Positions 9,594 through 53,061 of a DNA stretch of 64,000 bases are shown here, one piece after another. Position 1 is the stretch's first letter. The number at the start of each line of letters is the position of its first letter. The notes below the pieces were generated by a model. It had not been told where the DNA came from. It made no database searches and worked only from the letters and a program-made list of their open reading frames with translations. Made by a program: the position numbers and the translations under genes. The DNA comes from Tetracentron sinense (taxonomy: Eukaryota; Streptophyta; Magnoliopsida; Trochodendrales; Trochodendraceae), in the NCBI GenBank assembly GCA_015143295.1, contig CM026562.1, positions 11,684,041 to 11,748,040 on the forward strand, in the 5' to 3' direction.

Positions 9594-9759
9594 ACCGAGC
9601 GATCGGTGGTTATGACCGATCGATCGGTTGCCTACCGAGCGATCGGTACTCTGACCGAGCGACCGGTCAAAAAACTACTCTCTGGAAAAATTTTCCCATA
9701 CAAAAGTTTTGACCGTGCGATAGCTACCGATCGATCGCTGACTGGACCGAGCGATCGGT
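9594..9759 (-). promoter_or_regulatory. Palindrome cassette in the LTR U3
   Basis: Six copies of the 14-bp palindrome ACCGATCGATCGGT or a one- or two-base variant lie here, most at 20-28-bp spacing with one wider gap. A conserved spacer around CTCTCTGGAAAAATT...CCCATACAAAA splits them. The same arrangement occurs in five other LTRs in this window. A regulatory role is inferred from position, not shown. Confidence 0.65.
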
Positions 9760-10196
9760 GCTCTGTAGGTCTGGACTGTTTTGACCATATCTCTTGACTC
9801 GCTCGCCGGATTTCGACGATTCAACTTGTGTTGGGTTCGTCTTTCGAAAATGAACATTTCTGACGTGTCAGAATTTCCGATTTCTCTCTTATTTATTAAT
9901 TAGACTATGAGGAAGGCCAATTAGCTACAGAAACAGTATTCATTAAGTATAGAAAAGTCCGGGGTGCTACACAAAGCTTCTGATACTACCCAGTCATAGG
10001 GCAACCCGACACTGGATGTGAGGAAGAGTGATTCTAGGGTGTCCATGCTACTTGTTGATCCTATAAACCCTGAGTCACGTTATTTTAACTGATTCACTTT
10101 ATTTTGAGTGAACCACACAAATTAACCGATTTAGTTAAATAACAATTTTTGTAATGAAAGTCACTCAGTGAGAGTGGGGGGTTTGGCAGACCCCTA

Positions 10197-10428
10197 GGTG
10201 GCGCTTGGAATGGATTTTATTAGCCAAAAATCAATTGTGATAAATTTGATTATGTAGAAATTAATGGTCAAATAATTATTTTTTCAAATAATAGTGTTCG
10301 GAGAAAACGAAGTTGGGAGAGTCAACTTCGTATTCCCGAACACTATTATTTGAAAAAGTGATTATTGTCATACACTAAATTTTATCACAGTTGATTTTTG
10401 GCTAATAACATCCAATCCAAACGCCCCA
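10197..10428. mobile_element. Tourist-like foldback MITE in intron 3
   Basis: The whole 232 bp is a near-perfect foldback: the left arm from 10197 (GGTGGCGCTTGGAATGGA) pairs with the right arm ending at 10428, and the two meet around 10315 in CAACTTCGT and its complement. A 3-bp direct repeat, cta, flanks it (10194-10196 and 10429-10431), which fits PIF/Harbinger-type elements. Noncoding. Confidence 0.75.
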
Positions 10429-11189
10429 CTACTGATTCAAGCAAAATAACTAGATTCAGTTAAAATTACTAAATTCAAGCAAAATAACTAGATTCAACTA
10501 TTAAAATAACATGATCTAAGTTATTTAATTTGAATCACGTTACATTCTTTTACTTGAAGACAGAAAAGCTTTCACATGATGCATAAGTAGCTAGGAGCCT
10601 TTTGGACATCCCAAAATACTGTTAAAATGCAAATGGTCTCGGGTTGGCTTGAGACCGCACGGTCCCAGTAGATGCATTCATTTGCATATTGCACATGTAG
10701 CCACCGATCTACCCGTCAATCTGCTCTGCTAACTTTTGGGCCCCATCTACTTGGATGAATTATATCCCCACAAATATTGGTTCTGCAATGCACATTGACC
10801 AGTCTGATGTATGTCTGTACAAAGTAATTTGTTGTGATCGTTGATCACTTGTATAAAACGATTATACAGGAAGTGATTGATCTTGGTGTTCTCCGAATAG
10901 TTGTCCCTGGAAATTTTCCAATTGGTTGTTTTCCGAATTATCTCACGGCATTTAAAAACAATGATTCTGCAGCTTACGACGGATTCAAGTGCCTAAAAGA
11001 TTTTAAAAACTTTTCCATGTACTACAACAATCACCTCCAACAAGCCATTTTAGAGTTAAATCGGGAATACCCAAATGTTATTGTGGTTTATGCTGACTAT
11101 TGCAATGCCTTCCACTGGCTCCTTTAGAATGCTCCTTATCTTGGTGAGTCTTGAAATCACTTATATCCAAAACAATCTGTATAGCTTAA

Positions 11190-11273
11190 GGGGGCGTTTG
11201 GATTGGATTTTTCTTCTTCGATTTAATCACTTACAATCGATTATAATGACTATTTTTGATTTATTATGACAAG
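11190..11273. mobile_element. MITE end fragment in intron 4
   Basis: GGGGGCGTTTGGATTGGA at 11190-11207 is the same terminal sequence as the right end of the foldback MITE at 10197-10428. The rest of intron 4 is AT-rich with no matching second end, so this is a decayed or one-sided remnant. Confidence 0.4.
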
Positions 11274-11878
11274 GTTTCGATGTGGGGTCTATACAGAAAG
11301 CTTGTTGCGGAATCGGTGGCGATTACGATTTTGATCTTACTAGGTTTTGTGGAGCTCCAAGGGTTCTTGTTTGTCGCAATCCCGAGAGACGGGTTAGCTG
11401 GGATGGTATTCATTTGACTCAGGAGGCTTATAAGCATATGGCAGAATGGCTCATTCGAGACATCATGCCTAAGATCCATTGCATTGTTTGACGCAATTCC
11501 AATTTGGATTAATTGGGGTAGTTAAGTATTTTTTATTTTAGATTAATTTATTTATTAAATTGTGGGTTCTTGGGGGTAGTTAAGCTTTATTTAGATACGA
11601 TATGTAGCACCCTGGATATTTATTTTCTGTCATGTATTAAAACCTTAATGTCTTTTCCTTGGTAAGCAGTTGGAATTCCGAGTTTCTAAACTCCTTTTGC
11701 AGATCAGTCAACTTTGGGGACATTTTGGTCCATAAATGAAGTAAAATTTCGAAATTCTAAAATACCAGAAATGTTCATTTTCGAAAGAGGAATCCAACGC
11801 AAGTTGAATCGTCGAAATCCGACGAACAAGTCAAAAGTTATGGCCAAAATAGTAAAATGAGTCAAAAATCTGCAGAGC

Positions 11879-12092
11879 ACCGATCGCTAGAGATCGCTCG
11901 GTTCACAACCAATCACTCGGTCCAAATTAGCGATCGATCGGTCCACAACCGATCGATCGGTAGCTATCGACTGGTTAACTTTTTGTATGGAGAATTTTTC
12001 CGGAGAGGGTGTTTTTGACTGAGAGCTCGGTCAAGAATACTGGTTGAGCGGTAGGCGACCGATCGCTCGGTCATAACCACCGATTGCTCGGT
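11879..12092 (+). promoter_or_regulatory. Palindrome cassette upstream of the LTR TATA box
   Basis: About eight copies of ACCGATCGATCGGT-like palindromes, several degraded, lie 65-280 bp upstream of the TATA box at 12157. The spacer with CTATCGACTGGT and TTGTATGGAGAATTTTTCC is the reverse complement of the spacer seen in the minus-strand LTRs. Role inferred. Confidence 0.6.
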
Positions 12093-13404
12093 CTTTCGTG
12101 TTTTTGCAGAATTTCAGTAAGGGATTTTAGGTCTTTTTGCCCTCAACCCTTGAGGCTATAAATAGAGGTCCTATTTCGAGGTATTAGAGTACTTTACCTA
12201 TTTCTAACCTAATTTGGCAAGGAAAGAGAGAAAACCTAGGGTTTGAGGGAGAGTTTGCTTGGAGAAGAAGGAGATTGCTAGGAGATTGTAAGGAGAGCTT
12301 CGAGATCTCCCTCAAAGCTCCTCAAAATCACACTGTGAGCGATTTGGATCAAAGGGAAGGATCCCTAAGGTCGATAAACTCCCTAACTCAACTCTATTAA
12401 TGATGTTTGGTGAATATTATTATAATATAAATGATAGAAATGATAATTTGAATTTTTTTTTCCTAATTATGCATAAATTAAGCTTGTTAGAGATGGAAAT
12501 GGATCTAAGTTATGGATGGATTGTATGGAGGATGGGAAATATTATGGAGGAAGGGATGAATGTATGGATGTGGAGTATGTTTGGGTGTATAGATGGATTA
12601 TGGTGTGGTGGAATGTTAAAAATGGGAAAGGGCAAAATATTCATAATTAACTCACTCAAGGTGTTTGTTGAAATGCTTAAGAAGGAGAAATGTTAGTATG
12701 ATGCTATTGATTTGTAACGACCCCAAAATCCTACAAGGCTAAGATAGGACTTTGGAATCGTCACATTATCTTAAACCTGCTTAAAATTCATGCATACAAG
12801 GCTACTACACGAGTCTCCAAAAATGAGAGTAATAAAATTTCAATATATAAGCTATAACCAACCTGCACAAGTCTACGATCAACATCTATAACTCACTATA
12901 AACCAAAAGGTATGAAATACACAACTATAAAAAGTCTACTAAACAACATCATCTGAAAGTCTAATACAAAACTCTCTCAACCAACAAAACATAAACTAAG
13001 AGGTGTAGCCACCCAAGACTCCGGCTCCTTCCTCGATGGGCTCACCTTCTCCTCCTTCCTCGATGTAAGTCTCCTCAACCCACGGCTCTGCCGTGTACTT
13101 CTGCTCTAAACCTACCAAGACAAAAGTCTGGCTAAGTACAAAAGTACTCGGTGTATATAAAATCCAACCAACAATAATAATATACCTGCACTTGGTTTGA
13201 AACATATCCAATAGCATAATAACATAATCAGAGTACGGAAGAACGTGTGCGCATATACATCATATCATCACCTTGACTTGTGTACTTGTGGGAATCTTAG
13301 ACTTGGAAGACAATACACTTATGAGTTGCTTATGCTTATGAGACCACGTGCTTGTGAGATGCTTATGCTTATGCACTTATTCAGATCATACAATGATGTG
13401 ACAA

Positions 13405-13530
13405 GCCGTTCTTGGTGGATACGGACCATGTCTAAGAAATCATATGGTTAGCATGCAGTTCTTGGTGGATACGGACCATGCTTAAAAATCAAATGGTTGA
13501 CATGCCGTTCTTGGTGGATACGGACCATGT
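13405..13530 (-). repeat. Tandem repeat in the nested LTR, three copies
   Basis: Three copies of a roughly 50-bp unit with core CCGTTCTTGGTGGATACGG followed by ACCATG. CCGT and ACGG at the two ends of the core can pair. It lies at the same place in the LTR as the tandem arrays of the other Tekay-like LTRs, but its sequence is unrelated to theirs. Confidence 0.7.
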
Positions 13531-14499
13531 CATGCTTATGCTTATTCAGAATGTCATACTTATGCCATACTCATACTTGTGGTCCACATGTGTGACTTGT
13601 GAGACTCTTATCTTAACATACACGTGCATATGTGCTTAAGTGTCGAAATTAACATTCGAGTTGGTAATTGCTTAGATTCCGATCTCCCACCATACTGTCC
13701 CATACCAAATAGTTAGAGAATTCCCGGTTTGAGAGATTTTCTTCTAAGTTCTTACCTTCCCGACTATCAACTTCCATGCAAGTAATTAGGCATACTTATC
13801 AAACAATCACATATACATATCGTATCATAATTTATAGCACAACTCATAATCAATTTACCACCATTTCATAAGAGTATAATAGCATTTATCCTCTCAAGCA
13901 TTTTTACCAACACCTTGAGTACGCATAATATGAATCCACTTCCCTTCTATATTTTCAAGCATTCATCAAACCAAAATCCATCCATACAATCAATTCACCA
14001 TTCACATCCACATATTAATCCCATCCTCCATACATTTCCCATCCTCCCTAAATTTCCCATCCTCCATATATTCTATCCAAATCCAATCCACATTTCCATA
14101 AATAATTAGCTTACTTCATAGAAAATTTGGGAAAAATGCATTTAATCTCTATTCTATCATTCCTATCATATTAATATTCACCAAACATTAAAATAGAGTT
14201 GATTAGGATAGTATATCGACCTTAGGAATCCTTCTCTTGGATTCAAAACGCTCCTGAGGTGATTTGGGGAAGCTTTGAGGACGATCTCTAAGCTTTCCTC
14301 TCAATCTTCTAGCAATCTCCTTCTTCTCCAAGAAGGCCCTCTCTCAAAACCCTAGGGTTTCTCTCCCTTTTTGCTAAATTAGGTTAGAAATAGGTAGAGT
14401 ATTCTAATACCCCGAAATAGAATCCCTATTTATAGCCCCAAAGTTTGAGAACCAAAAGACCAAAAAGCCCTTACTAAAATTCTGAAAAAAATATGAAGG

Positions 14500-14664
14500 A
14501 CCGAGCGATCGGTTCTCAACCGAGCGATCGTTGCTCTTGACCCAGCTCTCGGTCAAAAAAGCACTCTCTAGAAATTTTTCCCATACAAAATTTTGGACCA
14601 GTCGATAGATACCGATCGATCGGTTTTGGACCGATCGATCGCTACTTCTAACCGAGCGATCAGT
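14500..14664 (-). promoter_or_regulatory. Palindrome cassette upstream of the nested LTR TATA box
   Basis: Five ACCGAGCGATCGGT/ACCGATCGATCGGT palindromes lie within 165 bp, about 65-230 bp upstream (minus sense) of the TATA box at 14426-14435. The spacer CTCTCTAGAAATTTTTCCCA matches the other cassettes. Confidence 0.65.
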
Positions 14665-15477
14665 GCTCTACAGATTTTTGACCCGCTTTACTGTTTCGGC
14701 CATAACTTTTGAATCGTTCGACAGATTTCGACGATTCAACTTGCGTTGGATTCGTCTTCCGAAAATGAATATTTCTAGCATTTTAGAATTTCCAAATTCT
14801 CATTTATTTATGGGCCAAAGTGTCTCCAAAGTTGACTGATCTGCAATTCCATCAGACAAAACATCGGAAAACCCACTTTTGACTTAGCTTAGACTAAAAA
14901 TATGAACAACATTAAACATGAACCTCGAAGAGGGTCTAATACCTTTCTAATGGTTCAAGAATCACTCAATTCCAATAAACGATGCCAAAACTAGAGCTTC
15001 CTAAAGTTTAGGGTGTGTTATGACATCCCTCCGCTTACAAGTTTGATTAAGTCTTAAGCACACTATACCAATTAGATATAAATACATAAATAGTAAAACA
15101 TCACAAGGACTATAATATCCCTAATACTTGCAATAAAAACATGAAAAATATTCGGGTCTCTACATGATTATTGATAAATTAAGTTAAATGGATATTGTTG
15201 TCGCTATGATAAATTATGCCTTATTTACTTGTATTGTGATCGGTATTCGGGTAGGCCAAATCTTAGAGGAAAATTTTTCACGTTGGGAATTCTCTAACTA
15301 GGGAGATGTAACCTAGCGGAGTTTCCTAACGGAAGATTGGAATCTAAGGATGACTCATTTGAATTCCAATCACGACACTCAAGCACACGTGCACTTGCAT
15401 GGTAAGTATTCAAGTCTCATGAGTCCACTTGTCTCACAAGCATGCGTGCATTGGATACGAACATGTTACGAATTATG

Positions 15478-15665
15478 CCATGAAAGAATGATCCCTCACT
15501 ACGAACATCCACTCTATGCATTGTCGCACTCATGTTATGCTATGAAAGAATGATTCCCCATTACGAACATCCACTCTATGCGTTGTCGAACACTATGAAT
15601 TATGCGTTACCGAGACAAAACACTATGAATTATGCATTGATGGGATAAACACCCTATGAATCATG
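15478..15665 (+). repeat. Tandem repeat in the outer LTR
   Basis: Two good copies of a 62-bp unit (ATGAAAGAATGATYCCYCAY... then ACGAACATCCACTCTATGC) start at about 15479 and 15541, followed by shorter CACTATGAATTATGC copies. It is at the position where the related LTRs carry other, unrelated tandem arrays. Confidence 0.65.
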
Positions 15666-16320
15666 CATGTATGAGTCTATGCATATGTTAAGGCAAGTTC
15701 ATGAATAAGAATCGCACGAGTACACTAGTCAAGATGATGTTATGACATGTTATATGCTTTGCACTCTGATTATGTCTATTTTACATGAAAGTAGTATGAT
15801 TAGGCTTAGATAAACTGAGTTATGCTATCGTTATTACTCATGCTATCTTATGTTGTTGTTAGTTTGCTTATCCAATGAGTATTCCATACTCAGTCGACCG
15901 GTCATTGTCTTCAGGTTTAGGAGGAGAGCCGTGGACTGAGGAGGTGTACGCCGAAGAGGGGGAAGAAGGTGAGCTTCCAGAGGAGGAGGCTAGGGATATT
16001 GATAGTCATCCCTATTGAGTAGTTTTAGTATTTCTTTTTGGAAGAGATATTTATATTAGACTTTTGACTTTTAGTTGATGTTGCCTTAGTTGTCTTACTC
16101 TATTGATGGTTTTAGACTATTTCGTTTATGAGGAGCTATGAGGTGTGGATTATCATTGTACAGGATGGTTTGACTTTTTTTGATCGAGATTTTACTATCC
16201 TCATTTTTGGAGACTCGTGTTAGTATGCCTTGTATGTATGGATTTTAAGCAGGTTTATGTAATGTGACAATTCTAAAGTCCTATTTTAGCCTTGTAGGAT
16301 TTTGGGGTCGTTACACGATA

Positions 16321-16867
16321 TCTTAGGACTATTTGGTTCTTCCAAGGATTTGTTTGTGACGAGTATTTTGCAATTAAATGTTATATAGATTGGTTATATA
16401 TAATCTAAAGTTTAGCATTTTGGTATGTATAAGTAGATCCCCTCCTTTTTTCTAGCTTTGTCTTTTTTTTTTTTTATATAAAATTATGGAAAACTGAAAT
16501 TTTTGTCAAGAAATTTATCTTATGAAAACTAACTTTCGATCAGTGTTCTCCCATTTGGCTGAAAGCCTAAGATTGGGGTAGAAGAAAAGAAAAGAAAATG
16601 AAATAAAAGAAAAGAAAAAAAATGAAATAAGTTAAAAGAAAAGAAAAGAAAAGAAAATGAGATTTTCTTGTGTGTTTAGTTTGCAAGATATTTAGAGAAA
16701 ACTAGAAATAAAAAAAATATCATTTTTTTCCTAAAATGTCCATTAGTCCTATACATATTTATATGTTAAATAATTAATGACATAACAATTTTGAATGATA
16801 ATTTTGAAAAGATACTTTTCTTGACATTTGTACCTTAATTTTCTCTCAAAATAGCTTTTTTTTACAT
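16321..16867. other. Flanking DNA with an AAAAG-rich low-complexity tract
   Basis: 16321-16560 continues the old 3' flank of the GDSL pseudogene beyond the solo LTR. 16577-16660 is made of AAAAG/AAAATG units. The rest is AT-rich. No gene recognised. Confidence 0.5.
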
Positions 16868-17388
16868 GTGAAAGTATTGAGAGAAGGTGAAGGAAAATTG
16901 AGATTCAATGGTCATGGAATGACAATTGGGAATGCTCCCAATACTAGGAAATCCACTTCCAAGGCAAAAGGGAAAGCGTCAACCTCCAAAGGCAAGGCCC
17001 CGGCCAAAGAAAAATCAAAAAATGCAGCACCTAGTGAACTTAGCCTTCCCTCGAGACTTCCCAAATTTGTGTCTTCTGCTTGTGAAAGTAGCTACAAAAG
17101 GTTTATGCATCGTCACCCAGTCCTGGTTGAGAGAAAAACTACCCTCTCAAATTTTCCTGGCTATGATTTAGTCAACATCATTAATGCTCGTGGGTGGGTA
17201 GGTGTTATTAAAGTTTATGGTCAGGCTCTGGTAAAACTAATTCAGGAATTTTATGCCAACATTTATGACTTCAATTCTGATACTTGGCTCCTACAGTCAA
17301 GAGTCCTTGGTCATCCTATTGTGATTCACTCGGATCTTATTGCCACCTTTCTTGAGTGTCCTCATGTCCTCGAGGCCTACTATCCCCA
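16868..17388 (+). pseudogene. Relic of a SIRE-type envelope-like reading frame
   Basis: About 170 codons remain. The segment with LVERKTTLSNF, IQEFYANI, HSDLIATFLECPHVLEAYYP aligns well with residues about 120-210 of the envelope-like protein at 26563-27852 (MVERDIQIADF, VREFYSNF, NADLISKFLGCPRVPNAYYP). A Lys/Ser/Ala-rich stretch precedes it in both. This is the family often labelled putative plant transposon protein. The relic is cut on the right by the LTR piece at 17389 and its left limit is unclear. Broken fossil of a second, older SIRE-like element, otherwise missing from the window. Confidence 0.75.
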
Positions 17389-17723
17389 TGTAACGACTCA
17401 AATTTTTGATATAAAATCTTGGGGGTCAAGGTAGCCTCTAATTAAGATTAAGTAATTAAAATTAATATTTATAATTAATTAGGGTGTCACCTTCTCCTAA
17501 TCGGAATCCTTAAACCCCCAGAAAAGTGTTTGGGTATACTAGCAGGACCCGATTTATTGGATCTAGTGTTGGATAATCACCAATAAAATGCAGTATTTTT
17601 ACCCAAAATTCTCACACTACGTGTTGGTTTGCTACCTGGATAACTATCCATCATGCCAGTCCCGTCACGCATCGGTTCGCAAAACTACGACGCGTCTTGT
17701 ACCCAAAATATGGGAAATCCGTG
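17389..17723 (-). mobile_element. LTR fragment, probably Gypsy
   Basis: Begins TGTAACGACTC, the same end type as the Tekay-like LTR at 12713, directly inside the envelope-like relic, and is cut at about 17724 by chromovirus A. No other part is visible. The family call rests on the end sequence alone. Confidence 0.45.
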
Positions 17724-20174: not shown

Positions 20175-20529
20175 TGATCCATAGTAGACTTAGGCTCGTA
20201 GTACTCCTTCACCCAAGACTCGGAGCAAACATCAAATGGACATGCCGATGATAACAAATCGGCTCAGCATGGAATACTTAGCCTGTACAAACCACTAAAT
20301 AATATGTCATAATTTCACATGCTTCACATAGTCAGTTCATAGAATACACATGCACTGAAACACATAAGGAAACCTCTTTGCAAATACACATGTGCGATAC
20401 GGTAGAAACACGTACACTTATTTTCAAAATCATATTCTTCTTTTCTTTTCTTCTATCTCTTTACCTCTACCCATGAAACATTCACTTTACTTTACACATG
20501 ACTTTATGGGAGTGTACACATGACTTTGA

Positions 20530-20800
20530 CTAATGCTCTACCTAGAGTGGTAGAAGTCCATTAGCATTCATATACACATGGAGTATGCCTAATGCTCTAC
20601 CTAGAGTGATAGAAGTCCATTAGCATCTTTATCTACCTCCCTATGGATATCTTTGCACATAGTTTACCTGGAACAAATGCCAAATGCTCTACCTAGGTTG
20701 GTAGAAGTCCATTTGCATCCTTCCAATACACATAGCTTCATTTGGGACTAGATGACTAATGCTCTACATAGGTTGGTAGAAGTCCACTATCATCCTCCCG
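20530..20800 (-). repeat. Hairpin tandem array in the chromovirus A LTR, four copies
   Basis: Copies start at about 20530, 20589, 20681 and 20756. Each 40-bp unit is a two-part stem: an outer pair (CTAATG with CATTAG) and an inner pair (CTACC with GGTAG). In the third copy the outer arm changes on both sides to CAAATG and CATTTG, keeping the pairing. Confidence 0.8.
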
Positions 20801-24531: not shown

Positions 24532-24533
24532 AG

Positions 24534-24754: not shown

Positions 24755-25989
24755 TGAAATTTATCCAGATTAATGATCTCTAAGACCTAGAGGGGGGGGG
24801 GGGGGTGAATAGGTCTATCTAATAATTTCTAACCAATTTTAATCTTTCAATTAATATGTTTAGAAATCAATGAATAATTCACTCAGACAATCCACACAAA
24901 TCAAACACAGAAGATTTTTACGTGGAAAACCCTAACGGGAAAAAACACGGGACCTTGTCCAGTAATAAACTTCACTATGAAAAGATATCAAGTACAAGAC
25001 AAGACCTTACCAAAACAGAAACGACGTTCCTAGGTATAGACTCTTACTCTTGATTTCCACGAACCAGCAGGTTCGATCTCCGCCGTAGCAGCTTCGGTTC
25101 CACACCGACCAAATCTTCTCAAGCTACTTCAAACCACGATCACACACGATCGATCTCCTTCCACGAAGGCTCCGGATCAAACACCGGACACACACACAAG
25201 GTGTAGGGTTGTGAATCAATTTAGGAAATTTCAAACCCTAGAGGGATCTCATATAGATCTGAGATCACACAATGCAAGATCAAAGGTTTAGATCTATACT
25301 TGCATTCTCTAGGATCAAAGAAAGAGGAGGGATCAACAAAGATCTAATAAAAACAATAGGAAAAACCCTAGAAGAGTTTCTCAGACCTCTACTCTTTCAA
25401 AAATAAACAAAGATACGAATTAGGTCTCCAAAAAGTTGTTTATATAGGGTTTAAAAAAAGAATCCAAAAAAATAAAAATTCTTTTTACGGGGACCGATCG
25501 ATCGGTGCTCATGACCGATCGCTCGGTCCAAAACGGATCGCTCGGTTCTCATGACCGATCGCTCGGTTAAAAATCATCTCTCTGGAAAAATACCCCATAC
25601 AAAATTTTTGTCCAGTCAATAGCCACCGATCGCTCGGTAGGCCACCGATCGATTGGTCTCAACACCGAGCGATCGGTTGAGACAGAATTTTTTTCAAACC
25701 ATATGTCTTTTCATGTTTATTTGATTCAACTAAGATCAAACAACTTTGTTAGGTTTAAAACTATCCTCCTAGGTATGTTTAGAGTTATCTAAGTCAAATC
25801 CAACCTAGGTAGGGGTCTCTAAGTCCATTACCTTTCTAGATCCAGAGTAGGAGCTTTTTCTTCACTTTCTTCATTCTTCTTGATGCTTTAGCTCTTCTCT
25901 TCTGACAAGTTGAACACGACTTGACGACTCGACTCACATGACCTATCTAATGATCACCGAATTTGCCAACACCTATTTAGGGATTTACA
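24755..25989 (-). repeat. 3' LTR of the SIRE-type element
   Basis: 1,235 bp, TGAAATTTATCC...GGGATTTACA on the plus strand. TATA box (CTATATAAAC on the minus strand) at about 25438-25447; palindrome cassette at 25493-25678. Confidence 0.92.
25493..25678 (-). promoter_or_regulatory. Palindrome cassette upstream of the SIRE 3' LTR TATA box
   Basis: Seven copies of ACCGATCGATCGGT or close variants (ACCGATCGCTCGGT, ACCGAGCGATCGGT) in 186 bp, with the spacer TCTCTCTGGAAAAATACCCC in the middle. It starts about 45 bp upstream of the TATA box in element sense. Confidence 0.7.
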
Positions 25990-26001
25990 ATCTCCCCCTT
26001 T
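25990..26001 (-). other. Polypurine tract of the SIRE-type element
   Basis: On the minus strand AAAGGGGGAGAT lies directly before the 3' LTR, the usual plus-strand primer of Copia elements. Confidence 0.85.
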
Positions 26002-26562
26002 GGCAATTCCGGGACAAAACAAGACTAACTCATATACTAGATTCAAATTTTCCCAAATGATTCAAAAATGGAAAATTGACCTTTACATGACTCAAAAATA
26101 ATTACATGACTTTTGACATGTTAGCTTGTCATGATTCACCAAACTTAGAACCTGTTTGCCTGCACATGCTAAATCAAAAACCTGTGAAGCATGGGAAATA
26201 AAATATGGGAAATATCCATAACATGTTAAGTATGTTTCCATAACATCATCCACACAATTATCATCCACGTCCACAAAATCATCATATCCATGTGTTATCA
26301 TGCACTCTCCCCCTTTTTGGCTCGAAATGCCAAAGGCGGACTATTAACAATAAAATTAACGCAGAAACACAAATGAGATGAGATATAAGAAACCATCCAA
26401 ATGCAGAAATCCATAACAAGTTAAAATATCCAAATAGGTTTGTACTAAGTACAACCAAGACAAAATACATCGAAATGTCAAACAAAAACTAGAACTAAGA
26501 TAAACTCCAAAATATACACATGAACCAGAAGGAGTTTCTATCCTAGTACATCACTCTAACTA

Positions 26563-27852
26563 TCACTCCTGCTCATCATTAGAAGTGAGTTGGGACTCAT
26601 AGTAAGCTCGAAAATCCCGAACATCTCTCTGTACGCCCAGCACTGCTGCATCGAGAGATCCAAGTCTACCACGAACGTCTGTAGTAAACTCCTCGTATGA
26701 CGAAACATGAGTCCTGAGATCCATCTGCATCTCTCGTATCATCCTGGCAAGATCATCCATAGTGGCCGGAGGAGGACGAGATGTCCCAGCACCAACTTCT
26801 GCTCCCTCCTCTGTATCTCGAACTGGGGCATGTGAAAAACTCTGAGCTAGGGTCTTTTTGTTGATTGGACCCTTAGGAACTCGAGTAGGAACACCAGGAG
26901 GAGCGATAACTCCTTGAGAACCAAGAAGTTTAGTGATGAGTGAACCAAATGGTAGGGCTCCAACTGCTGTAACAGTTTGATGGGCTTGGATCATCAAGTC
27001 AATGATGTGAGCGGCAAGATCAATATCACGCCCACCTAGAAGACTAAACAGAAACCTAGCTCTATCTTCCCTAAGGTCCGCATTATGAACCTTTGGATGG
27101 ATATTTGCACTCATAACTAGGTTTACTAGTCTAGCATCCTTAGTAAGTTTCGCCACTTCAATAAGAGACCCAACCCAAAACGTAGGAGTACCACAAAGAA
27201 AGGTAACAACATGTTCCATGGAGTCTTTATCCTCATCACTCTTATAATTATAAGGATAATATGCATTTGGAACTCGAGGACAGCCAAGGAATTTAGAAAT
27301 CAAATCAGCATTTATGACAACAGATTGTTCTAATGCTCGAGATTTGAATGACCATTTTTTATGGTTGATTTCAGAAAAATTAGAGTAAAATTCCCTAACT
27401 AACTGGACAGAAGCAGGACCGGATAAGGTAAGTATACCTTCCCATTTACGATCTGAAATGAGTTTAGGAAGATAATAATCACCAAAATCGGCAATTTGAA
27501 TGTCCCTTTCAACCATTACACCTTTCTTGCTAAAATACTCACTATAGAGTTGAGCAGCAGTAGGACTTATGAACTGGGATAACTGACTGGACTGGGAAGA
27601 TGAAGCTTTACCTTTATTTTTTCGAGTTTTATCAGCCAAAGATTTTTGTCGATTCTCAGTTGTAGAATCTATCATTCTACGAATTGGCCTGTCCCCAATT
27701 GAAATACCATGCCCTATTGGAGTGAAAGTAAAAGGCTCTTGGTTTTGCTCATCTTCAGGAGGGTACTCTTGGTTGTTGAGGACCAACCTCCGGCGTTTGG
27801 GAACGCCAGACATGAGATAGGCTAGAAGAATTAAGGACAAAAGGAAAGCCAT
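26563..27852 (-). CDS. Envelope-like protein of the SIRE-type element
   Basis: Open over 429 codons. A hydrophobic start (AFLLSLILLAYLM) is followed by MSGVPKRRR, a Lys/Ser-rich stretch (about 60-100), a conserved domain (about 110-320: MVERDIQIADF, REFYSNF, LISKFLGCPRVPNAYYP, FLFSLLGGRDIDLAAHIIDLM), a Pro-rich stretch and a C-terminal coiled coil (about 365-425). The domain is that of the putative plant transposon family; its relation to true envelope proteins is not established, and I see no clear transmembrane anchor except the short N-terminal one. A second possible start, MSGVPKRRR at 27813, directly follows a splice-acceptor-like TTCTTCTAG, so the hydrophobic lead may be leader sequence. 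A relative lies at 16868-17388. Confidence 0.8.
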   Translation of the reverse strand: MAFLLSLILLAYLMSGVPKRRRLVLNNQEYPPEDEQNQEPFTFTPIGHGISIGDRPIRRMIDSTTENRQKSLADKTRKNKGKASSSQSSQLSQFISPTAAQLYSEYFSKKGVMVERDIQIADFGDYYLPKLISDRKWEGILTLSGPASVQLVREFYSNFSEINHKKWSFKSRALEQSVVINADLISKFLGCPRVPNAYYPYNYKSDEDKDSMEHVVTFLCGTPTFWVGSLIEVAKLTKDARLVNLVMSANIHPKVHNADLREDRARFLFSLLGGRDIDLAAHIIDLMIQAHQTVTAVGALPFGSLITKLLGSQGVIAPPGVPTRVPKGPINKKTLAQSFSHAPVRDTEEGAEVGAGTSRPPPATMDDLARMIREMQMDLRTHVSSYEEFTTDVRGRLGSLDAAVLGVQRDVRDFRAYYESQLTSNDEQE

Positions 27853-28040
27853 AGATGAATCGACGATGCCCTAGATGAAAAAATCAATCTATACTCAAGA
27901 AAACGCACAAGGCTTACCTTTTTGATGCTTGGAAAACCCTTAGAGGTGAATGAAATGACCGTAGGAAGGATTTGGAGGAGAGGAAACCGAGAGATCGCTC
28001 TAGAGTTCGGAGAAGAAGTGAACAGAAAAAATAGAAATGA

Positions 28041-28101
28041 GGGTTTTATAACTCTGTTCACGAAAGACCGATCGATCGGTCTTTAACACCGAGCGATCGG
28101 T
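28041..28101 (-). promoter_or_regulatory. Candidate internal promoter upstream of the envelope-like frame
   Basis: On the minus strand two palindromes, ACCGATCGCTCGGT (28088-28101) and ACCGATCGATCGGT (28067-28080), are followed by a TATA-like GTTATAAAACCC (28041-28052), about 190 bp before the first ATG at 27852. A GTAAGCC donor-like site at about 27920 and an acceptor-like CTTCTAG at about 27825 suggest a leader intron. The layout copies that of the LTR promoters. Inference from sequence only. Confidence 0.5.
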
Positions 28102-29292
28102 GGTCTGAAAAGTTTTTCAAAAATTTTACTTTTAAAACCTTTTCTCCCCTTCAACCAATGGAACATTAAAAACTCATTTTCACCTCAAAATAACCAATTC
28201 ACCAAAAAATTTGCAATAATTGATTTCATTAAAATCATAAAGAATAATCACCCAAGAATTGATATATCAAGTACAGTCATAAACAAGGATTATGTAAACA
28301 ATAATTGATTTTCACCGGTGATTAAATATGGTATTTGCATCAAATTCACAATCAGAGTCAAGAAACAATTAGAAGTAATGTGAGTGTGAAATCAAAATTC
28401 ATTACTTGACTCTTTGAATTGGTTTCCTTCCTTAAGCTAGATTTTGACATTATAGCTCAAATGGGACTCTAAAATTTTCAAAAACTAGTTTTAAAACCAA
28501 TAAACATCCATACTTATATGATGAGCAATTTTTACCCCAAATTTGACTAACAAATTTATTTCATTTCTTTTTCAGTCAAATTGTACTCATTGTGAAAATT
28601 CTTTTTGGAGTACACATATATAGTTTTTAGCACATTGGTGACTTTCACTCAAGTGAGAAGGCAGCTCTTTCTAATGACAGTGGGGGCTTTCACACTAGCA
28701 ATCCATATAGATACCTACTGTTTGTCTAGGTAGCCATTACTCACTGTTTGCATTCACTAGTAGCTATCACACAAACTCACAGGTAGTCCTCTCCATGTCA
28801 ATAATTTTTATAACTAGGGGGCTCACCTTATGGAATTTTTTATGACATTGGATATACTAGATTTGATTAATCTAGGGAACCATATGGTATAATATCAGAA
28901 CCTTTAAATAGGAACTAATACCATCTAAAGAATCAGTCAGAGTGCATGTGCAATATATAACATCTTTGTTTACTCAACTCTAACTGAGATTAGTTAGCAT
29001 GACCAAATTCAATCACAAGATCAAACCAACAGTTGACCTATCCTAATTTATCCAATCCTATGAAATATTTATCCTTGCATTATATGTTTAAATATGATTT
29101 CAAGGAAATAACTTTAAGCAAAATGATTGGAAAGAAGGTCATACAAACACATTATTTTTTTTTTGCAATATTTTTCAATTTTTTTTTTTTTATGTTTTTG
29201 GATTTTTATTACTTAAAGAAAATAACAAAAAAAATAGCTCTATGACATAAATAGAACATGAAGAACACATAGGCTATGAAACAAGTACATCT
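28102..29292. other. SIRE spacer between pol and the envelope-like frame
   Basis: About 1.2 kb of AT-rich DNA with no reading frame of note; part of the element. T- and A-rich runs occur at about 29150-29200. Confidence 0.6.
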
Positions 29293-32200
29293 TTACTCAA
29301 CTCCGCACAAACCTATGGATTTCCTAAGGAGTTCAAACCTAAGGGAATCTAAGGGTTTTGTTAGAATGTCCGCAAATTGATTCTCTGTTTGGACATACTC
29401 TATAGACACAATCTTTTGCTCAACAAGATCACGGATGAAGTGATGTCTTATGTCTATGTGTTTTGTGCGAGAATGTTGAACGGGATTTTTGGAAATATTG
29501 ATAGCACTTGAATTATCACAATACACAGTCATAGTGCTCTGTTCAATCCCGTAATCATTCAACATCTGCTTCATCCACAGAAGTTGAGTGCAACAACTGC
29601 CAGCTGCTATGTACTCAGCTTCTGCAGTGGACAATGAAATTGAATTCTGCTTTTTGCTAAGCCAAGCAACTAAGCAGTTTCCAATATAGAAACATCCTCT
29701 AGAGGTGCTCTTCCTATCATCAGCATTTCCGGCCCAATCGGCATCGGAATATCCAACTATCGTGGCATTTGTATCAAAAGAATACAAGAGTCCAAATGAT
29801 AGAGTTCCACTCACATATCGAATGATACGCTTAACTGCAAGCAAGTGAGACTCTTTTGGGCTCGCTTGATAGCGGGCACATGCACCAACACTAAATGCTA
29901 TATCAGGTGTAGTAGCAGTTAAGTAGAGTAAACTACCAATCATGCTTCTATAAGAAGTTTGATCAACATCTTTACCTGTAGCATCTTTACTAAGTTTTGT
30001 AGTAGAACTCATAGGAGTTCTTACATGCTTAGCAGAGCTCATGCCAAATTTCTTCACTAGATTTTTAGCATATTTGATTTGAGATACTGAGATCCTAGAA
30101 TCCAATTGCTTGATCTGAAGACCAAGGAAGAAACTTAGCTCACCAACCATGCTCATTTCAAATTCATTTTTCATTTGTTCAGCAAATGAACGAGCATGTA
30201 AGTCTAATGTGGAACCAAACACTATGTCATCAACATATATCTGGGCGATGACAATATCACCTTTCACATTCTTTATGAAAAGGGTTCTGTCTACTCCCCC
30301 TCTCGAAAATCCGTTTTCCAAGAGATAAGTAGTCAGCCTCTCATACCAAGCTCTTGGAGCTTGCTTTAAACCATAGAGGGCCCTTTTTAGCCGATAGACT
30401 TGATCAAGGTGATGTGGATCTTCAAACCCTTTTGGTTGTTCCACATAGACTTCCTCATGTAGAATGCCATTCAGAAAGGCACTCTTAACATCCATTTGAA
30501 AAAGTTTGAATTTCATATGGCAAGCCACAGCTAGAAGAATTCTTATTGATTCTTGCCTAGCTACAGGAGCAAACGTTTCATCGAAGTCAATACCTTCAAT
30601 TTGGGTGTATCCTTGTGCAACTAACCTAGCCTTATTTCTTATGATAGTACCTTTTTCATCAGATTTGTTCTTGAAAATCCATTTGGTACCTATCACATTT
30701 GTATTGTTAGGCCTAGGTACTAAATACCAAACATCATTCCTAGTAAACTGAAGTAACTCTTCTTGCATTGCATTTATCCAATTATCATCTGCAAGAGCTT
30801 CAGCTACAGTCTTGGGTTCAAAAGATGAAGTATAGCAAATGTAGCTAACTTCATTTTCAATTTGTTTCCTCGTTCTCACTCCACTCTCAACATCACCAAT
30901 TATATCAGTGGGGGTGTGAGGACTCATGACCCTATAATGTGTAGGTTTTGATGGAGATGATTGCTTATCAATAAGTGGAGTTGAAATAGTTTCAACATTT
31001 TCATTTTCAGCACTTTCATCATCCTCAAGTTGCACATTTTCAACACCGGAGTCATCCACAACTACATTTATGGACTCCATAATCGTAGAGGTTCTCAAGT
31101 TATACACTCGATAAGCTCTACTGTTGGTGGAATATCCAAGAAATATCCCTTCATCACTCCGGGATTCAAATTTGCCCAGTTGCTCTCTATCCTTAAGGAT
31201 ATAGCATTTACTTCCGAATTCTCGAAAGTACTTGACACTAGGTTTCTTGTTATTCCACAACTCATATGGGGTTTTCCTTGTTCCAGGTCTTACAAAAACT
31301 CTATTAACTATATAGCAAGCAGTGTTAACTGCCTCTGCCCAGAAATGAGAAGCTAGATTGTTGCTATGAAGCATAACTCTAGCCATCTCTTGGAAAACCC
31401 TGTTCTTCCTCTCTACTACACCATTCTGCTGAGGTGTAATAGGTGCAGAAAATTCATGTTTGATACCCGACTCATCACAAAAATCGTTGTACTTAGAGTT
31501 TTCAAACTCCTTTCCATGATCACTTCGTATTCGAGTGATTGGGCATCTTTTCTCATTTTGAATTTTCAAGCAAATACTTTTGAAATTGTCAAAAGCATCG
31601 GATTTCTCTCTTATAAATGCCACCCATGACATTCTTGAGAAATCATCAACCATAACTAGAATGTATCGCTTTCCACCTAGGCTTTCAGTTCTTGTAGGAC
31701 CCATTAGATCCATATGAATTAATTCCAGTGGATATGAAGTAGCAATACTTGAAGTCTTCTTATGTGGGGTTCTAATTTGTTTACCAATTTGGCATGGCCC
31801 ACACACAGCAGTAGAAGGCTTTCCTAGTTTGGGAACTCCTCTTATAAGCTCTTTCTTAGAGATTTTACAAAGGTCTTTGAAGTTCATGTGACCTAGTCTT
31901 CGGTGCCACAAATCAACCTCCTCAATTTTAGTCTTATAACAGACATTTGAGGGATTAAGACTGGGAATTAAGCCGTAGCAATTGTCAGTGGTTCTCAACC
32001 CTTCTAGAACACACTTACCTTTACCATTAATGACTAAGCATTTATTTTGGGTAAAGTGCACAACATGGTTATCATCACATAGTTGACTTATGCTAATTAA
32101 ATTAGCTTTCAGTCCTTCAACAAACAAGGCATCTTTCAATTTTGGTATGCCTGGTGAATCGATGATACCCTTCCCCTTTACTAAAGATTTGCTTCCATCA

Positions 32201-34617
32201 CCAAAAGTAACAGTCCCATCTGGACAGTCCTCAAATTGAGTAAATAAGGACTTGTTACCTGTCATATGCAGAGAACACCCACTGTCGAAGTACCACATTT
32301 CTATGTTTTGGGCTTTCAAGGCAGTGTGAATGACGAAGCACTTCAGGTCATCCTTTCTTACATACACAGTCTTTAAACTTTGTTTAGATCTTTGATCATT
32401 AAACTGTGTATTAGAAACCTTTTTCCTTTTTGTCCTCCTTGACCTTTTCTTATTTTGTTCAGTTCTAGCTTTTTGATTAGTCAAATTCTTTCCTCTTGAA
32501 TAATCATTTGGAATAAATTGACCAGTTCTTGTCATAGAGATTTGAGCAATTCTATTAACATCTTCGCTCAATATTCTAGACTTTTCAGCCAGAACCTGAA
32601 TCTGCCTTTGAAGAGTCCCTTGACTTTGATTTTGGTTCCATGAACCATTTTGAGGAGCTCTCCTAAAAGCATTACAATTTGGTCGTATGTGACCTCTCAC
32701 ACCACAAAAGTGACATGTGGGTATGAATCTTGGGAGAGGAGGAGGATTTCTTCTAATAGGAATTTGATTCCTCAAAGCATTCACTTTAGGAGCTGTATTT
32801 CTAGGCTTTACAAAATTTGTATAAGCCTTAGTACTTGATGTAGAAGGTAGATTCACTTTAGGATCAGAATGTATTGGCTCAAACACTGCACTAGCCATTG
32901 TACCAACAGCTAAAGGACCAGCTGGTGTGTCAGCATGTCCTATCCCAGATCTACTCGAATTTGACCCATACTTTCTAACTAATTCATCTAGGCAGCTAGT
33001 GTTACTAAACATTCTTACTTCTTTTTCAAGAGTATAGACCTTTTGAATCAAATCAGTCTTGTCTTTAAGGGTAATTTGATATTCTTTTTCAAGAAATTTC
33101 ACCTTATCAACAAGAGAGTCTTTAAAAGTTTCCAGCTCCATTTGCAGAGTTCTTAACTCTTCAATTTCTTTCATGGAAGTGTCTCTTTCAACTTCTAATT
33201 TTCTGATCACATTAGTCAATGAGACATTCTCTTCCAAAAGACATTGAACTTTCATAACAAATGCTTCTTTTTCATTTTCCAACTGACTAACTAGAGCACT
33301 CTTCTCTTCTGCTACTAGTTTACAAATATCTCTTTCATTTTGAATGATTTTGAGTTTTTTGCTCAAGGAGATTTTTGTTTTAGTCAGCTTCAAACTTTCA
33401 GCATACAACTTATCATAAGTTGTTTTCAAATCTTCATCACTTTCAGAGTCAGTTTGACTCTTCTGTATGTCATCACTAGACTCAGTATGAACACTCTCAT
33501 CACTTCTATCCTTTTCATCAACCGCAGAGGTAGTCTCAAGAATCCCAGAAAGGGAAACAGTGAAAGCCGTATGATTTCCAGTATCTTCACTTGAAGAGGA
33601 ACTGTCCGATTCTTCATTCTCGGAATCACTGTCATCCCAACAGGCATTCATCACCTTGCCCTTACTCTTCTTCTTGTTAGGACAGTTAGGTGAAATATGA
33701 CCGAAGCCATGGCATTCATAACATTGAACACCTTGGGATTTCTTGTCACCACTCTTGGAATTTTTCTTGTTTTCCCAGGGCTTAGACTTTGACTTCTCAA
33801 AATATTTTCCTCCCTGTTTGGGATTGAACCTCTTTTTCGTTCTAAAAAATTTTCGAAATTTTTTAACGAAGAGAGCCATTTCTTCCTCATTCATATCTCC
33901 ATCACTGTCATCCTCATCCAAAGTTTCCTTGATGGATTTCAAGGCTAAAGATTTGTTCTTCTTGGATGGATGGAGATTGAGTTCATAGGTTTGGAGTGAA
34001 CCAACCAATTCCTCAATCTTCAGAGAGTGATCAACATTTTTACTCTCTTCGATTGCAGTGACTTTGGGTTGAAATCTCTCAGGGAGAGATCTAAGGACTT
34101 TTCTAACTATTTTGGACTAAGATATTTTCTCACCTAAATTGAAACTAGCGTTGACAATGTCACTAAGTTTTGCATAGAATTCATCAAAAGTGTCATTGTC
34201 ATCCATGTTTAGATGTTCAAATTTGGTGGTTAACATTTGGAGTTTTGAGATTTTAACAGTGGTAGTACCCTCATGGGTAATTTCAAGAATGTCCCAAGCC
34301 TCCTTTGCTGTTTCACTTGAAGAAATTCGTCTGAATTCCTCAGCAGTGACTGCAGTAAAGATAGCATTGAGACCTTTAGTGTTCCATCCACTTGACTCAA
34401 GCTCTTCTCTGGTCCATTCATCATAATATTTGACCACAGTCAAATCACCTACAGTTTTTATGGGCGTAGTCCACCCATTCTGTATAGACATCCAGATTCT
34501 CTCGTCAATAGATTTGAGAAAGGCTCTCATTCTAGCTTTCCAGTATGCAAAATTATTTCCATCAAAAAGTGGGGGACGAGAGACGGATCCTCCTTCTCTT
34601 AGAGTACTCATGATCAC
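29293..34617 (-). pseudogene. gag-pol region of the SIRE-type element
   Basis: Encodes a long Copia polyprotein. In element order: gag core near 34617-34120 (PPLFDGNNFAYWKARM), zinc knuckle [14 protein letters not shown] at about 33723-33682, acidic and coiled-coil stretch (33650-33000), second zinc knuckle [14 protein letters not shown] near 32710, protease with [13 protein letters not shown] near 32285, integrase zinc domain HRRLGH...CGPCQIGK (31915-31795) and core (31740-31390, [25 protein letters not shown]), RT (30740-30200, YVDDIVFGS near 30230), RNase H (29760-29330, [19 protein letters not shown]). Nearly the whole length is open; treated as a fossil with about one or two breaks. The second zinc knuckle is unusual for Copia gag. 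Confidence 0.9.
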
Positions 34618-34661
34618 GGATAATACAGGATCACACTTAAGGGATTAGCCTTATCAGTGAA

Positions 34662-34676
34662 CTCGCTTTGATACCA
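34662..34676 (-). other. Primer-binding site of the SIRE-type element
   Basis: TGGTATCAAAGCGAG on the minus strand, two bases after the 5' LTR; initiator tRNA-Met type with one change from the common TGGTATCAGAGC. Confidence 0.8.
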
Positions 34677-34678
34677 AT

Positions 34679-35906
34679 TGAAATTTATCCAGATTAATGA
34701 TCTCTAAGACCTAGAGGGGGGGTGAATAGGTCTATCTAATAATTTCTAACCAATTTTAATTTTCAATTAATATGTTTAGAAATCAATGAATAATTCACTC
34801 AGACAATCCACACAAATCAAACACAGAAGATTTTTATGTGGAAAACCCTAACGGGAAAAAACCACGGGACCTTGTCCAGTAATAAACTTCACTATGAAAA
34901 GATATCAAGTACAAGACAAGACCTTACCAAAACAGAAACGACGTTCCTAGGTATAGACTCTTACTCTTGATTTCCACGAACCAGCAGGTTCGATCTCCGC
35001 CGTAGCAGCTTCGGTCCCACACCGACCAAATCTTCTCAAGCTACTTCAAACCATGATCACACACAATCGATCTCCTTCCACGAAGGCTCCGGATCAAACA
35101 CCGGACACACACACAAGGTGTAGGGTTGTGAATCAATTTAGGAAATTTCAAACCCTAGAGGGATCTCATATAGATCTGAGATCACACAATGCAAGATCAA
35201 AGGTTTAGATCTATACTTGCATTCTCTAGGATCAAAGAAAGAGGAGGGATCAACAAAGATCTAATAAAAACAATAGGAAAAACCCTAGAAGAGTTTCTCA
35301 GACCTCTACTCTTTCAAAAATAAACAAAGATACGAATTAGGTCTCCAAAAAGTTGTTTATATAGGGTTTAAAAAAAGAATCCAGAAAAATAAAAATTCTT
35401 TTTACGGGGACCGATCGATCGGTGCTCATGACCGATCGCTCGGTCCAAAACGGATCGCTCGGTTCTCATGACCGATCGCTCGGTTAAAAATCATCTCTCT
35501 GGAAAAATACCCCATACAAAATTTTTGTCTAGTCGATAGCCACCGATCGCTCGGTAGGCCACCGATCGATCGGTCTCAACACCGAGCGATCGGTTGAGAC
35601 AGAATTTTTTTCAAACCATATGTCTTTTCCTGTTTATTTGATTCAACTAAGATCAAACAACTTTGTTAGGTTTAAAACTATCCTCCTAGGTATGTTTAGA
35701 GTTATCTAAGTCAAATCCAACCTAGGTAGGGGTCTCTAAGTCCATTACCTTTCTAGATCCAGAGTAGGAGCTTTTTCTTCACTTTCTTCAATCTTCTTGA
35801 TGCTTTAGCTCTTCTCTTCTGACAAGTTGAACACGACTTGACGACTCGACTCACATGACCTATCTAATGATCACCGAATTTGCCAACACCTATTTAGGGA
35901 TTTACA
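34679..35906 (-). repeat. 5' LTR of the SIRE-type element
   Basis: 1,228 bp, near-identical to 24755-25989. TATA box at about 35355-35364. Confidence 0.92.
35410..35594 (-). promoter_or_regulatory. Palindrome cassette upstream of the SIRE 5' LTR TATA box
   Basis: Seven ACCGATCGATCGGT-type palindromes, matching the cassette at 25493-25678 with only a few differences. This is the copy next to the promoter expected to drive the genomic transcript. Confidence 0.7.
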
Positions 35907-38400: not shown

Positions 38401-38406
38401 GCTCTA

Positions 38407-53056: not shown

Positions 53057-53061
53057 GCCTC

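What the first reader, a model, noticed from the sequence alone, without database searches (positions are those of the whole stretch)
9594..35594. One palindrome cassette shared by LTRs of two unrelated superfamilies
The SIRE-type Copia LTRs (25493-25678, 35410-35594) and three Tekay-like Gypsy LTRs (9594-9759, 11879-12092, 14500-14664) carry 5-8 copies of ACCGATCGATCGGT, with similar spacing and with the same spacer text (CTCTGGAAAAAT...CCCATACAAAA...TCGATAGC). The rest of these LTRs is unrelated. In four of the five the cassette sits 15-290 bp upstream of the TATA box. Either a module of about 190 bp moved between Copia and Gypsy elements, for instance by template switching during reverse transcription, or both captured the same regulatory DNA.
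Basis: seen in the sequence. Interest (0 to 1): 0.88.

Follow-up and report, generated by a model that had tools for sequence, protein, structure and literature searches.

The report
Promoter palindromes shared across retrotransposon superfamilies
In this plant DNA, two unrelated kinds of jumping element carry the same array of short palindromes, mostly just upstream of their start-of-transcription signal, which suggests that a control switch passed from one kind to the other.

Summary
A ~185-bp cassette of 14-bp palindromes (ACCGATCGATCGGT) lies in both LTRs of a full-length Copia element and in three Gypsy-type solo LTRs, in one orientation to transcription. Unit register and a ~50-bp spacer are shared: a Gypsy-only profile finds both Copia cassettes (E 2.7e-41, 2e-40), and the Copia spacer alone finds exactly the three Gypsy LTRs besides its own two copies. 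So the cassettes are homologous; flanks are not clearly related.

(1) Such arrays are a known kind: palindromic, CpG-rich "RM" boxes of Sirevirus Copia elements, upstream of the TATA box and of the env-like gene (PMC2829016). This Copia meets three of five Sirevirus landmarks tested, and has two units 16 bp upstream of a TATA box before its additional ORF. (2) A fourth Gypsy LTR, homologous upstream, carries ten units of another palindrome (TGCGATCGATCGCA) at the same ~20-bp period. (3) A third type clusters elsewhere.

Best reading: a Sirevirus-type control array that crossed between Copia and Gypsy. Direction, age and mechanism are unresolved; the plant genome could not be searched. New variant of a known kind.

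The parts
24755..35906 (-). Full-length Sirevirus-like Copia element, target-site duplication TGATA at 24750-24754 and 35907-35911
   Evidence: LTR pair 24755-25989 / 34679-35906; 8 transitions, 2 transversions over 1227 aligned sites and 9 gapped columns (K2P 0.008); gag, integrase and RVT_2 domains
35410..35594 (-). Palindrome cassette in the Copia 5' LTR: 7 units, spacings 20,19,71,21,19,21
   Evidence: TATATAA 46 bp beyond the last unit, at 35357-35363
25493..25677 (-). Palindrome cassette in the Copia 3' LTR: 7 units, same spacings
   Evidence: 98% identical to the 5' LTR cassette
28067..28101 (-). Two-unit mini-cassette 16 bp upstream of a TATA box (28044-28050) before the Copia additional ORF; a weak third unit (3 mismatches) lies at 27986, downstream of that TATA box
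   Evidence: found by the Gypsy-only profile at E 1.2e-6
26563..27870 (-). Additional ORF of the Copia (stop to stop; first Met at 27813): PF20167 Transposase_32, E 1.7e-29
7582..9971 (-). G1: solo LTR of Gypsy type, target-site duplication CAAAG on both sides
   Evidence: 84% over 113 bp to the G4 LTR
9594..9759 (-). Palindrome cassette of G1 (no TATA box found within 320 bp)
11603..16315 (+). G2: solo LTR of Gypsy type (2256 bp in two pieces, interrupted by G3), target-site duplication CGATA
   Evidence: 77% over 182 bp to the G4 LTR
11879..12092 (+). Palindrome cassette of G2 (TATA box from 12157)
12713..15164 (-). G3: solo LTR of Gypsy type inserted into G2, target-site duplication TGATT
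   Evidence: 80% over 152 bp to the G4 LTR
14500..14664 (-). Palindrome cassette of G3 (TATA box ending at 14434 on the + strand)
56258..58692 (-). G4: 3' LTR of a Gypsy element whose pol lies at 58743-62017 (minus strand) in the order protease, RT-RNaseH, integrase
58072..58331 (-). G4 array: ten units of a different 14-bp palindrome, TGCGATCGATCGCA (nine with at most 2 mismatches, one with 4), spacings 21,50,21,20,20,52,20,20,22
   Evidence: no spacer similarity to the other cassettes found (0 of 8 comparisons); no TATA box within 320 bp

Best explanation
The cassette is a Sirevirus-type repeated-motif (RM) control array: five to seven 14-bp palindromes about two helical turns apart, ending 46-65 bp upstream of the TATA box where one is found. 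One and the same array, descended from a single source, sits in the LTRs of a Copia (Sirevirus-like) element and in three Gypsy LTRs, and a two-unit piece of it sits upstream of the Copia additional ORF. It must therefore have crossed between superfamilies. Shown: the arrays, their homology and polarity, their place before TATA boxes in 4 of 5 LTR cassettes, and that the LTR cassettes lie in four insertions bounded by target-site duplications. Inferred: it was transferred (by template switching during reverse transcription or by conversion between DNA copies). Inferred with less certainty: it works as a row of sites for a dimeric DNA-binding protein on one face of the helix that promotes LTR transcription or keeps the CpG-rich promoter unmethylated, so that an element capturing the cassette gains the same activator.
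For: Homology: a Gypsy-only profile finds the Copia cassettes at E 2.7e-41 and 2e-40; the first scores 135.8 bits, against 81.8 bits in the reversed orientation, which palindromes alone can give. Spacer alone: E 8.5e-5 to 2.6e-3 for exactly the three Gypsy LTRs; masked spacers, 0 of 5000 shuffles in each of three comparisons. Register: Copia [20,19,71,21,19,21], G3 [21,19,71,21,19], last part of G2 [21,19,70,21,19,21], G1 [20,72,20,19,21] with one unit missing, weak units inside the long gap summed. Linkage: four insertions with target-site duplications. Function: TATA box 46-65 bp downstream in 4 of 5 cassettes and 16 bp downstream of the copy before the additional ORF; CpG observed/expected 1.5-1.8 in the cassettes against 0.53 in the window; unit spacings in phase at 10.2 bp in the four arrays tested (R 0.85-0.90 for Copia, G1, G3 and 0.88 for the differently spelled G4 array). 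Published parallel: RM boxes upstream of TATA and upstream of ENV in Sireviruses, forming CpG islands (PMC2829016).
Against: No protein is known to bind these units, and no expression or methylation data could be used. The 20-bp period could be a relic of tandem duplication; the phase null (each gap jittered by up to 5 bp) is reached in 2.1%, 1.5%, 5.9% and 0.06% of trials for Copia, G1, G3 and G4, and G2 was not tested. CpG decay between G2 and G3 is not clearly lower in the cassette (13 kept, 4 decayed) than in the flanks (9 kept, 4 decayed), and cassette identity there (80%; 77% in the alignment) is close to that of the flanks (75%), so constraint is not shown. Direction is open, and Gypsy cassettes tend to be closer to each other than to Copia. 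G1 and G4 have no TATA box within 320 bp. A simple CpG-island rule (200 bp, GC 50%, o/e 0.6) covers the cassettes of both Copia LTRs, G1, G2 and G4 but not G3 or the copy before the additional ORF, and marks many other stretches of the window.
Confidence: 0.6

Rival explanations
1. Convergence: Copia and Gypsy LTRs each built their own palindrome array under pressure from one host factor.
For: The G4 Gypsy LTR has an array of another palindrome with the same period downstream of the same flank, a third type clusters elsewhere, and Sireviruses carry many different RMs (PMC2829016), so arrays arise or change repeatedly.
Against: Spacer, polarity and register are shared between Copia and G1-G3.
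Confidence: 0.05
2. The cassette is a dispersed genomic minisatellite, or a piece of a third mobile element, that both superfamilies picked up independently.
For: The plant genome could not be searched, so copies outside LTRs may exist. In maize a Sirevirus palindrome is also the most abundant motif of structured Helitron regions (PMC10760457, section 10).
Against: In the window the cassettes lie within LTRs or just upstream of a TATA box, in one polarity to transcription; only 2 of 36 unit matches lie elsewhere.
Confidence: 0.13
3. The array acts at the RNA level: self-complementary units fold the U3 transcript into long hairpins that feed small-RNA production or serve packaging; its place before TATA boxes is incidental.
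For: RNA folding z-scores of -6.2 (Copia), -5.9 (G1) and -7.8 (G4), with 0 of 200 shuffles as stable in each (G2 and G3 not folded). In maize, Sirevirus LTR palindromes are small-RNA hotspots (PMC5311732; PMC10760457).
Against: Self-complementary units are expected to give such z-scores, so the result is not independent. A place upstream of TATA, repeated at an internal promoter, is better explained by DNA-level control.
Confidence: 0.2
4. The cassette is an anti-silencing platform bound by an element-encoded protein, perhaps that of the Copia additional ORF (PF20167), as VANC proteins bind short motifs in VANDAL transposons. Gypsy elements borrowed the target sites. (Overlaps with the best explanation; the confidences are not exclusive.)
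For: Units precede a TATA box before that ORF. VANC targets are short tandem motifs that change in concert, and VANC6 motifs also occur in the unrelated AT9TSD1 (PMC5735166). The unit sequence differs as a whole between G1-G3 and G4.
Against: Four of the 13 RM-bearing Sireviruses in PMC2829016 lack an ENV gene.
Confidence: 0.12

Closest known systems
Sirevirus repeated-motif (RM) boxes, Bousios et al. 2010, PMC2829016
   Same: Palindromic units in many copies, upstream of the TATA box in the LTR and additionally upstream of the ENV gene, forming CpG islands; unit sequence varies among elements.
   Different: Reported as Sirevirus-specific (absent from the other Copia elements compared). Here the same array, spacer included, is also in Gypsy LTRs. 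The unit has CCG..CGG, not their CGG-CCG signature; their exception Tnd-1 (ACAATCGATTGT) shares the ATCGAT centre with ours.
CpG islands in the 5' half of Del (Tekay) Gypsy LTRs, Cruz et al. 2014, PMC4029996
   Same: CpG-rich, variable-length stretch in the 5' half of a Gypsy LTR; [quoted passage not shown]
   Different: What I read (abstract, sections 14, 15, 21, passages) reports no palindrome array and no sequence shared with Copia. Their cluster A, which holds all eudicot copies, predominantly lacks islands.
Sirevirus palindromes shared with Helitrons in maize, PMC10760457
   Same: A Sirevirus palindrome occurring in another superfamily.
   Different: Helitrons, not Gypsy; motif level only. 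[quoted passage not shown]
VANC target motifs of VANDAL transposons, PMC5735166 and PMC10398659
   Same: Short tandem motifs in non-coding TE DNA, changing in concert, and found in an unrelated TE.
   Different: DNA transposons; the word palindrome does not occur in PMC5735166; the binding protein is known. None is known here.
LTR recombination between related Gypsy elements (centromeric retrotransposons, PMC4079200) and template-switching complexes (PMC1950507)
   Same: LTR segments swap between elements.
   Different: In the passages read the swaps are between related elements, not between Copia and Gypsy.

Membership tests
Sirevirus (Copia), criteria of PMC2829016 | PPT AGGGGGAG exactly 10 bp upstream of the 3' LTR | tested here: met
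   Terminal copy begins 10 bp from the 3' LTR
Sirevirus (Copia), criteria of PMC2829016 | Several PPT copies in the linker (3-5 per element in their table) | tested here: inconclusive
   Two in the linker (26314, 25999), one more in pol
Sirevirus (Copia), criteria of PMC2829016 | CA/ATTGG/TATCAGAGC junction of 5' LTR and PBS | tested here: met
   CA ATTGG TATCAAAGC, one mismatch (criterion)
Sirevirus (Copia), criteria of PMC2829016 | Palindromic RM, at least 8 copies per element, upstream of TATA and (if ENV is present) upstream of ENV | tested here: met
   7 units in the 3' LTR plus 2 upstream of the TATA box before the additional ORF. That the PF20167 ORF is their ENV gene was not tested
Sirevirus (Copia), criteria of PMC2829016 | CGG-CCG signature in the RM | tested here: not met
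   Unit reads CCG..CGG. One of their 13 RMs (Tnd-1) also lacks the signature, so this is not decisive
Sirevirus (Copia), criteria of PMC2829016 | RT-RNaseH phylogeny places the element among Sireviruses | not tested
   No reference set at hand; RT relatives up to 63% identical among the 120 listed of 7998 hits, the named ones listed being plant proteins
Ty3/Gypsy (G4) | Gene order protease, RT-RNaseH, integrase next to the LTR | tested here: met
   RVP_2, RVT_1/RNase H, integrase in that order on the minus strand, in three separate open frames
Ty3/Gypsy (G1, G2, G3) | Coding domain of Gypsy type | not testable with these tools
   Solo LTRs; assigned by similarity of the 5' LTR part to the G4 LTR (E 2e-28, 2e-34, 1e-31)
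Del/Tekay lineage | RT-RNaseH phylogeny or chromodomain | tested here: inconclusive
   No chromodomain at E up to 10 in the G4 integrase ORF; RT tree not made; LTR lengths 2256-2452 bp fit the published 1143-4831 bp range
VANC-like anti-silencing system | Element-encoded protein that binds the motif and removes methylation | not testable with these tools

The most novel reading that the evidence does not exclude
Palindrome arrays form a portable regulatory code of plant LTR retrotransposons. A specific dimeric factor, host- or element-encoded, reads each unit type; whole arrays pass between Copia and Gypsy, so unrelated elements join one regulon; and arrays switch unit sequence in concert (ACCG.. 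to TGCG.., with CGATCGATCG kept), so that a family leaves one regulon for another under pressure from silencing.
Probability: 0.25. Interest if true: 0.82.

Novelty: new variant of a known kind. Interest (0 to 1): 0.6.

Why it matters
RM arrays were described as a Sirevirus-only feature. The same array in Gypsy LTRs indicates that LTR control regions can be exchanged between superfamilies whose LTRs are otherwise unrelated. It offers a natural test of what these palindromes do, and of whether unrelated retrotransposons can share one activator or one small-RNA target.

Tried and rejected
Considered and rejected: chance; convergence for the ACCG cassettes. Homology of the G4 spacers with the other cassettes was tested and not found (0 of 8 comparisons). 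Copia/Gypsy flank homology was tested three ways with mixed results. Unanchored local alignment, 6 comparisons: scores reached by 74 (G1 downstream), 210 (G1 upstream), 804, 1621, 1665 and 1909 of 2000 shuffles. Anchored at the cassette edge: G1 upstream 1 and downstream 5 of 100 shuffles, the other four 14-65. Anchored, against 1000 real window segments: G1 downstream 1, G1 upstream 24, the other four 54-237. I take only the 7 bp CCCCGTA next to the cassette (G1 and Copia) as likely shared. The cassette quartet is not resolved (515, 306, 179 of 1000 bootstraps). CpG protection of the cassette was tested and not shown. Unit-level comparison: Copia and G1 units resemble their array mates (1.14 and 1.20 differences) more than their counterparts in each other (1.67), a weak sign of concerted change, but G2 and G3 do not (3.43 and 2.47 within the array). 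Positions 6 and 9 of the unit: never both changed (13 TC, 9 TA, 4 GA, 0 GC of 26 units), not tested for significance. Pattern scans of viral contigs (2) and genome contigs (1) found nothing, as expected of collections without plants. Exact-sequence paper search: 3 papers, one bacterial with the ACCG 14-mer, two medical with other strings, none on LTRs. Rfam and tRNA scans of the window: none.
Full report
What is there. The window (GC 0.41) is plant DNA by its elements and their protein relatives. The unit ACCGATCGATCGGT, at most 3 mismatches, occurs 36 times against 1.0 expected; 34 of 36 are in six places: three Gypsy-type LTRs (G1, G2, G3), both LTRs of a Copia element, and one site inside that Copia. 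The Copia is full length (24755-35906) with a 5-bp target-site duplication; its LTRs differ by 8 transitions and 2 transversions over 1227 sites. G1, G2 and G3 are solo LTRs, each with its own duplication (CAAAG, CGATA, TGATT); G3 is inserted in G2. Their assignment to Gypsy rests on similarity of 113-182 bp of LTR to a fourth LTR, G4, that is attached to a Gypsy-type pol.

Are the cassettes homologous? Palindrome arrays align with each other in either orientation, so I used three controls. First, orientation: with a profile built from the three Gypsy cassettes only, the Copia 5' LTR cassette scores 135.8 bits in the orientation that matches transcription and 81.8 bits reversed; the excess comes from text with a polarity. 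Second, spacer only: the Copia spacer alone (55 bp, including a stretch that resembles a decayed unit) retrieves the three Gypsy LTRs at E 8.5e-5, 2.2e-4 and 2.6e-3, the next hit having E 6.2; with units of up to 4 mismatches masked, 0 of 5000 shuffles reach each score. Third, register: unit spacings agree to one base over six intervals between Copia and the last part of G2, and over five between Copia and G3, once weak units inside the long gap are summed; G1 lacks one unit.

How alike are they? Cassette identities are 71-77% between Copia and Gypsy and 77-79% among Gypsy. Gypsy cassettes thus tend to be closer to each other than to Copia; Copia-G1 exceeds the mean of G1-G2 and G1-G3 in only 163 of 1000 bootstraps, and the quartet is unresolved. 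Outside the cassette, G2 and G3 remain alike (74-77%), while G1 against G2 or G3 falls to 64-68% upstream and 48-52% downstream, a level I take for unrelated without having run a control; the 50-60 bp next to the cassette still align between G1 and G3 (73% over 71 bp, cassette edge included). So even within Gypsy the cassette largely outlasts its LTR context. That pattern fits either exchange, or constraint followed by decay after insertion; between G2 and G3 cassette (80%, or 77%) and flanks (75%) hardly differ. Copia and Gypsy flanks show no clear similarity, except that G1 and Copia share CCCCGTA next to the last unit.

The internal copy. Two units lie at 28067-28101, 16 bp upstream of a TATA box before the Copia additional ORF (PF20167, E 1.7e-29). 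Both are identical to the first two units of the Copia 5' LTR cassette, but the edge facing the TATA box (CTTTCGTG) matches G2 in 8 of 8 bases. This hints at more than one exchange, on little sequence.

A different array after the same flank. G4, whose LTR is homologous to G1-G3 upstream, carries ten units of TGCGATCGATCGCA at 58072-58331, nine with at most 2 mismatches and one with 4. The period is the same, the centre CGATCGATCG is kept, and the outer bases differ from those of G1-G3 on both sides of the unit. Its spacers do not resemble those of the other cassettes (0 of 8 comparisons), so replacement and in-place change cannot be told apart. The four arrays tested (Copia, G1, G3, G4; weak units of the long gap dropped in G1 and G3; G2 not tested) are in phase at 10.2 bp, R 0.85-0.90; a null that jitters each gap by up to 5 bp reaches the best R in 2.1%, 1.5%, 5.9% and 0.06% of 5000 trials. 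The first three are homologous and not independent. A third palindrome type, YTAACCNNGGTTAR with up to 2 mismatches, gives 44 matches against 8.8 expected, many at 51.6-52.5 and 54.4-56.2 kb.

What it is. Bousios et al. 2010 (PMC2829016; abstract, sections 6, 9, 10, 12, 19 and passages read) describe palindromic repeated motifs in 13 Sireviruses: many copies upstream of the TATA box, further copies upstream of the ENV gene, CpG islands at both places, and absence from the other Copia elements compared. The Copia here has the Sirevirus PPT exactly 10 bp before the 3' LTR, the LTR/PBS junction with one mismatch, and RM-like units at both typical places; it has two linker PPTs where their table gives 3-5, and it departs from the CGG-CCG signature, as does their Tnd-1. 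CpG observed/expected is 1.5-1.8 in the cassettes against 0.53 in the window; a simple island rule covers the cassettes of both Copia LTRs, G1, G2 and G4 but not G3, and marks many other stretches. So the Copia half of the finding is a new member of a known kind. For Gypsy, Cruz et al. 2014 (PMC4029996; abstract, sections 14, 15, 21 and passages read) describe variable CpG islands in the 5' half of Del/Tekay LTRs and cite the Sirevirus ones, without a shared sequence in what I read. In maize a Sirevirus palindrome is also the most abundant motif of structured Helitron regions, while Ty3/Gypsy elements generally lack an obvious peak (PMC10760457, sections 10 and 21). Bousios et al. 2016 (Genome Res) is not held; I know it from recall and from citations in PMC5311732 and PMC10760457 (passages). 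In the paper searches that bore on this (listings seen) I saw no report of one array shared by Copia and Gypsy; the library lacks most subscription papers.

How it probably works. Position, polarity, phase and repetition at an internal promoter point to a DNA-level control array read by a dimeric protein; this is inference. RNA hairpins (z -5.9 to -7.8 for three cassettes) are expected from self-complementary units and so do not discriminate. Template switching is reported to make chimeric LTR elements (PMC1950507, passages), and LTR segments recombine among related Gypsy elements (PMC4079200, passages); neither, as read, reports Copia-Gypsy exchange.

Limits. One Copia element and three Gypsy LTRs in one window; no genome-wide count, no expression, methylation or small-RNA data. 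Direction, age and number of transfers are open.

Noticed in passing
51622-52535 and 54375-56241; also 127-1425 and 37801-37833: A third palindrome type (YTAACCNNGGTTAR, up to 2 mismatches): 44 matches in the window against 8.8 expected, many in what looks like the LTR of another element (repeat 37788-38402 / 52470-53058).
   Followed up: partly
1454-1967 and 22299-22811: Inverted pair of 514 bp, 92% identical, 20 kb apart; element not identified.
   Followed up: no
10860-11492 (+): Reads like a fragment of a GDSL esterase/lipase gene (by eye, family recalled; no search answered).
   Followed up: no
16808-17434 (+): Open frame with a weak partial match to the same PF20167 domain as the Copia additional ORF (E 1.5e-5, 25.4 bits, below the cut-off of 45).
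   Followed up: no
20519-20805; 8307-8604; 49811-50423: Local tandem repeats with start-to-start distances of about 60-230 bp.
   Followed up: no
58069-58331: The G4 array contains an internal duplication offset by about 114 bp (75% identical), which may be how its unit number grew.
   Followed up: partly
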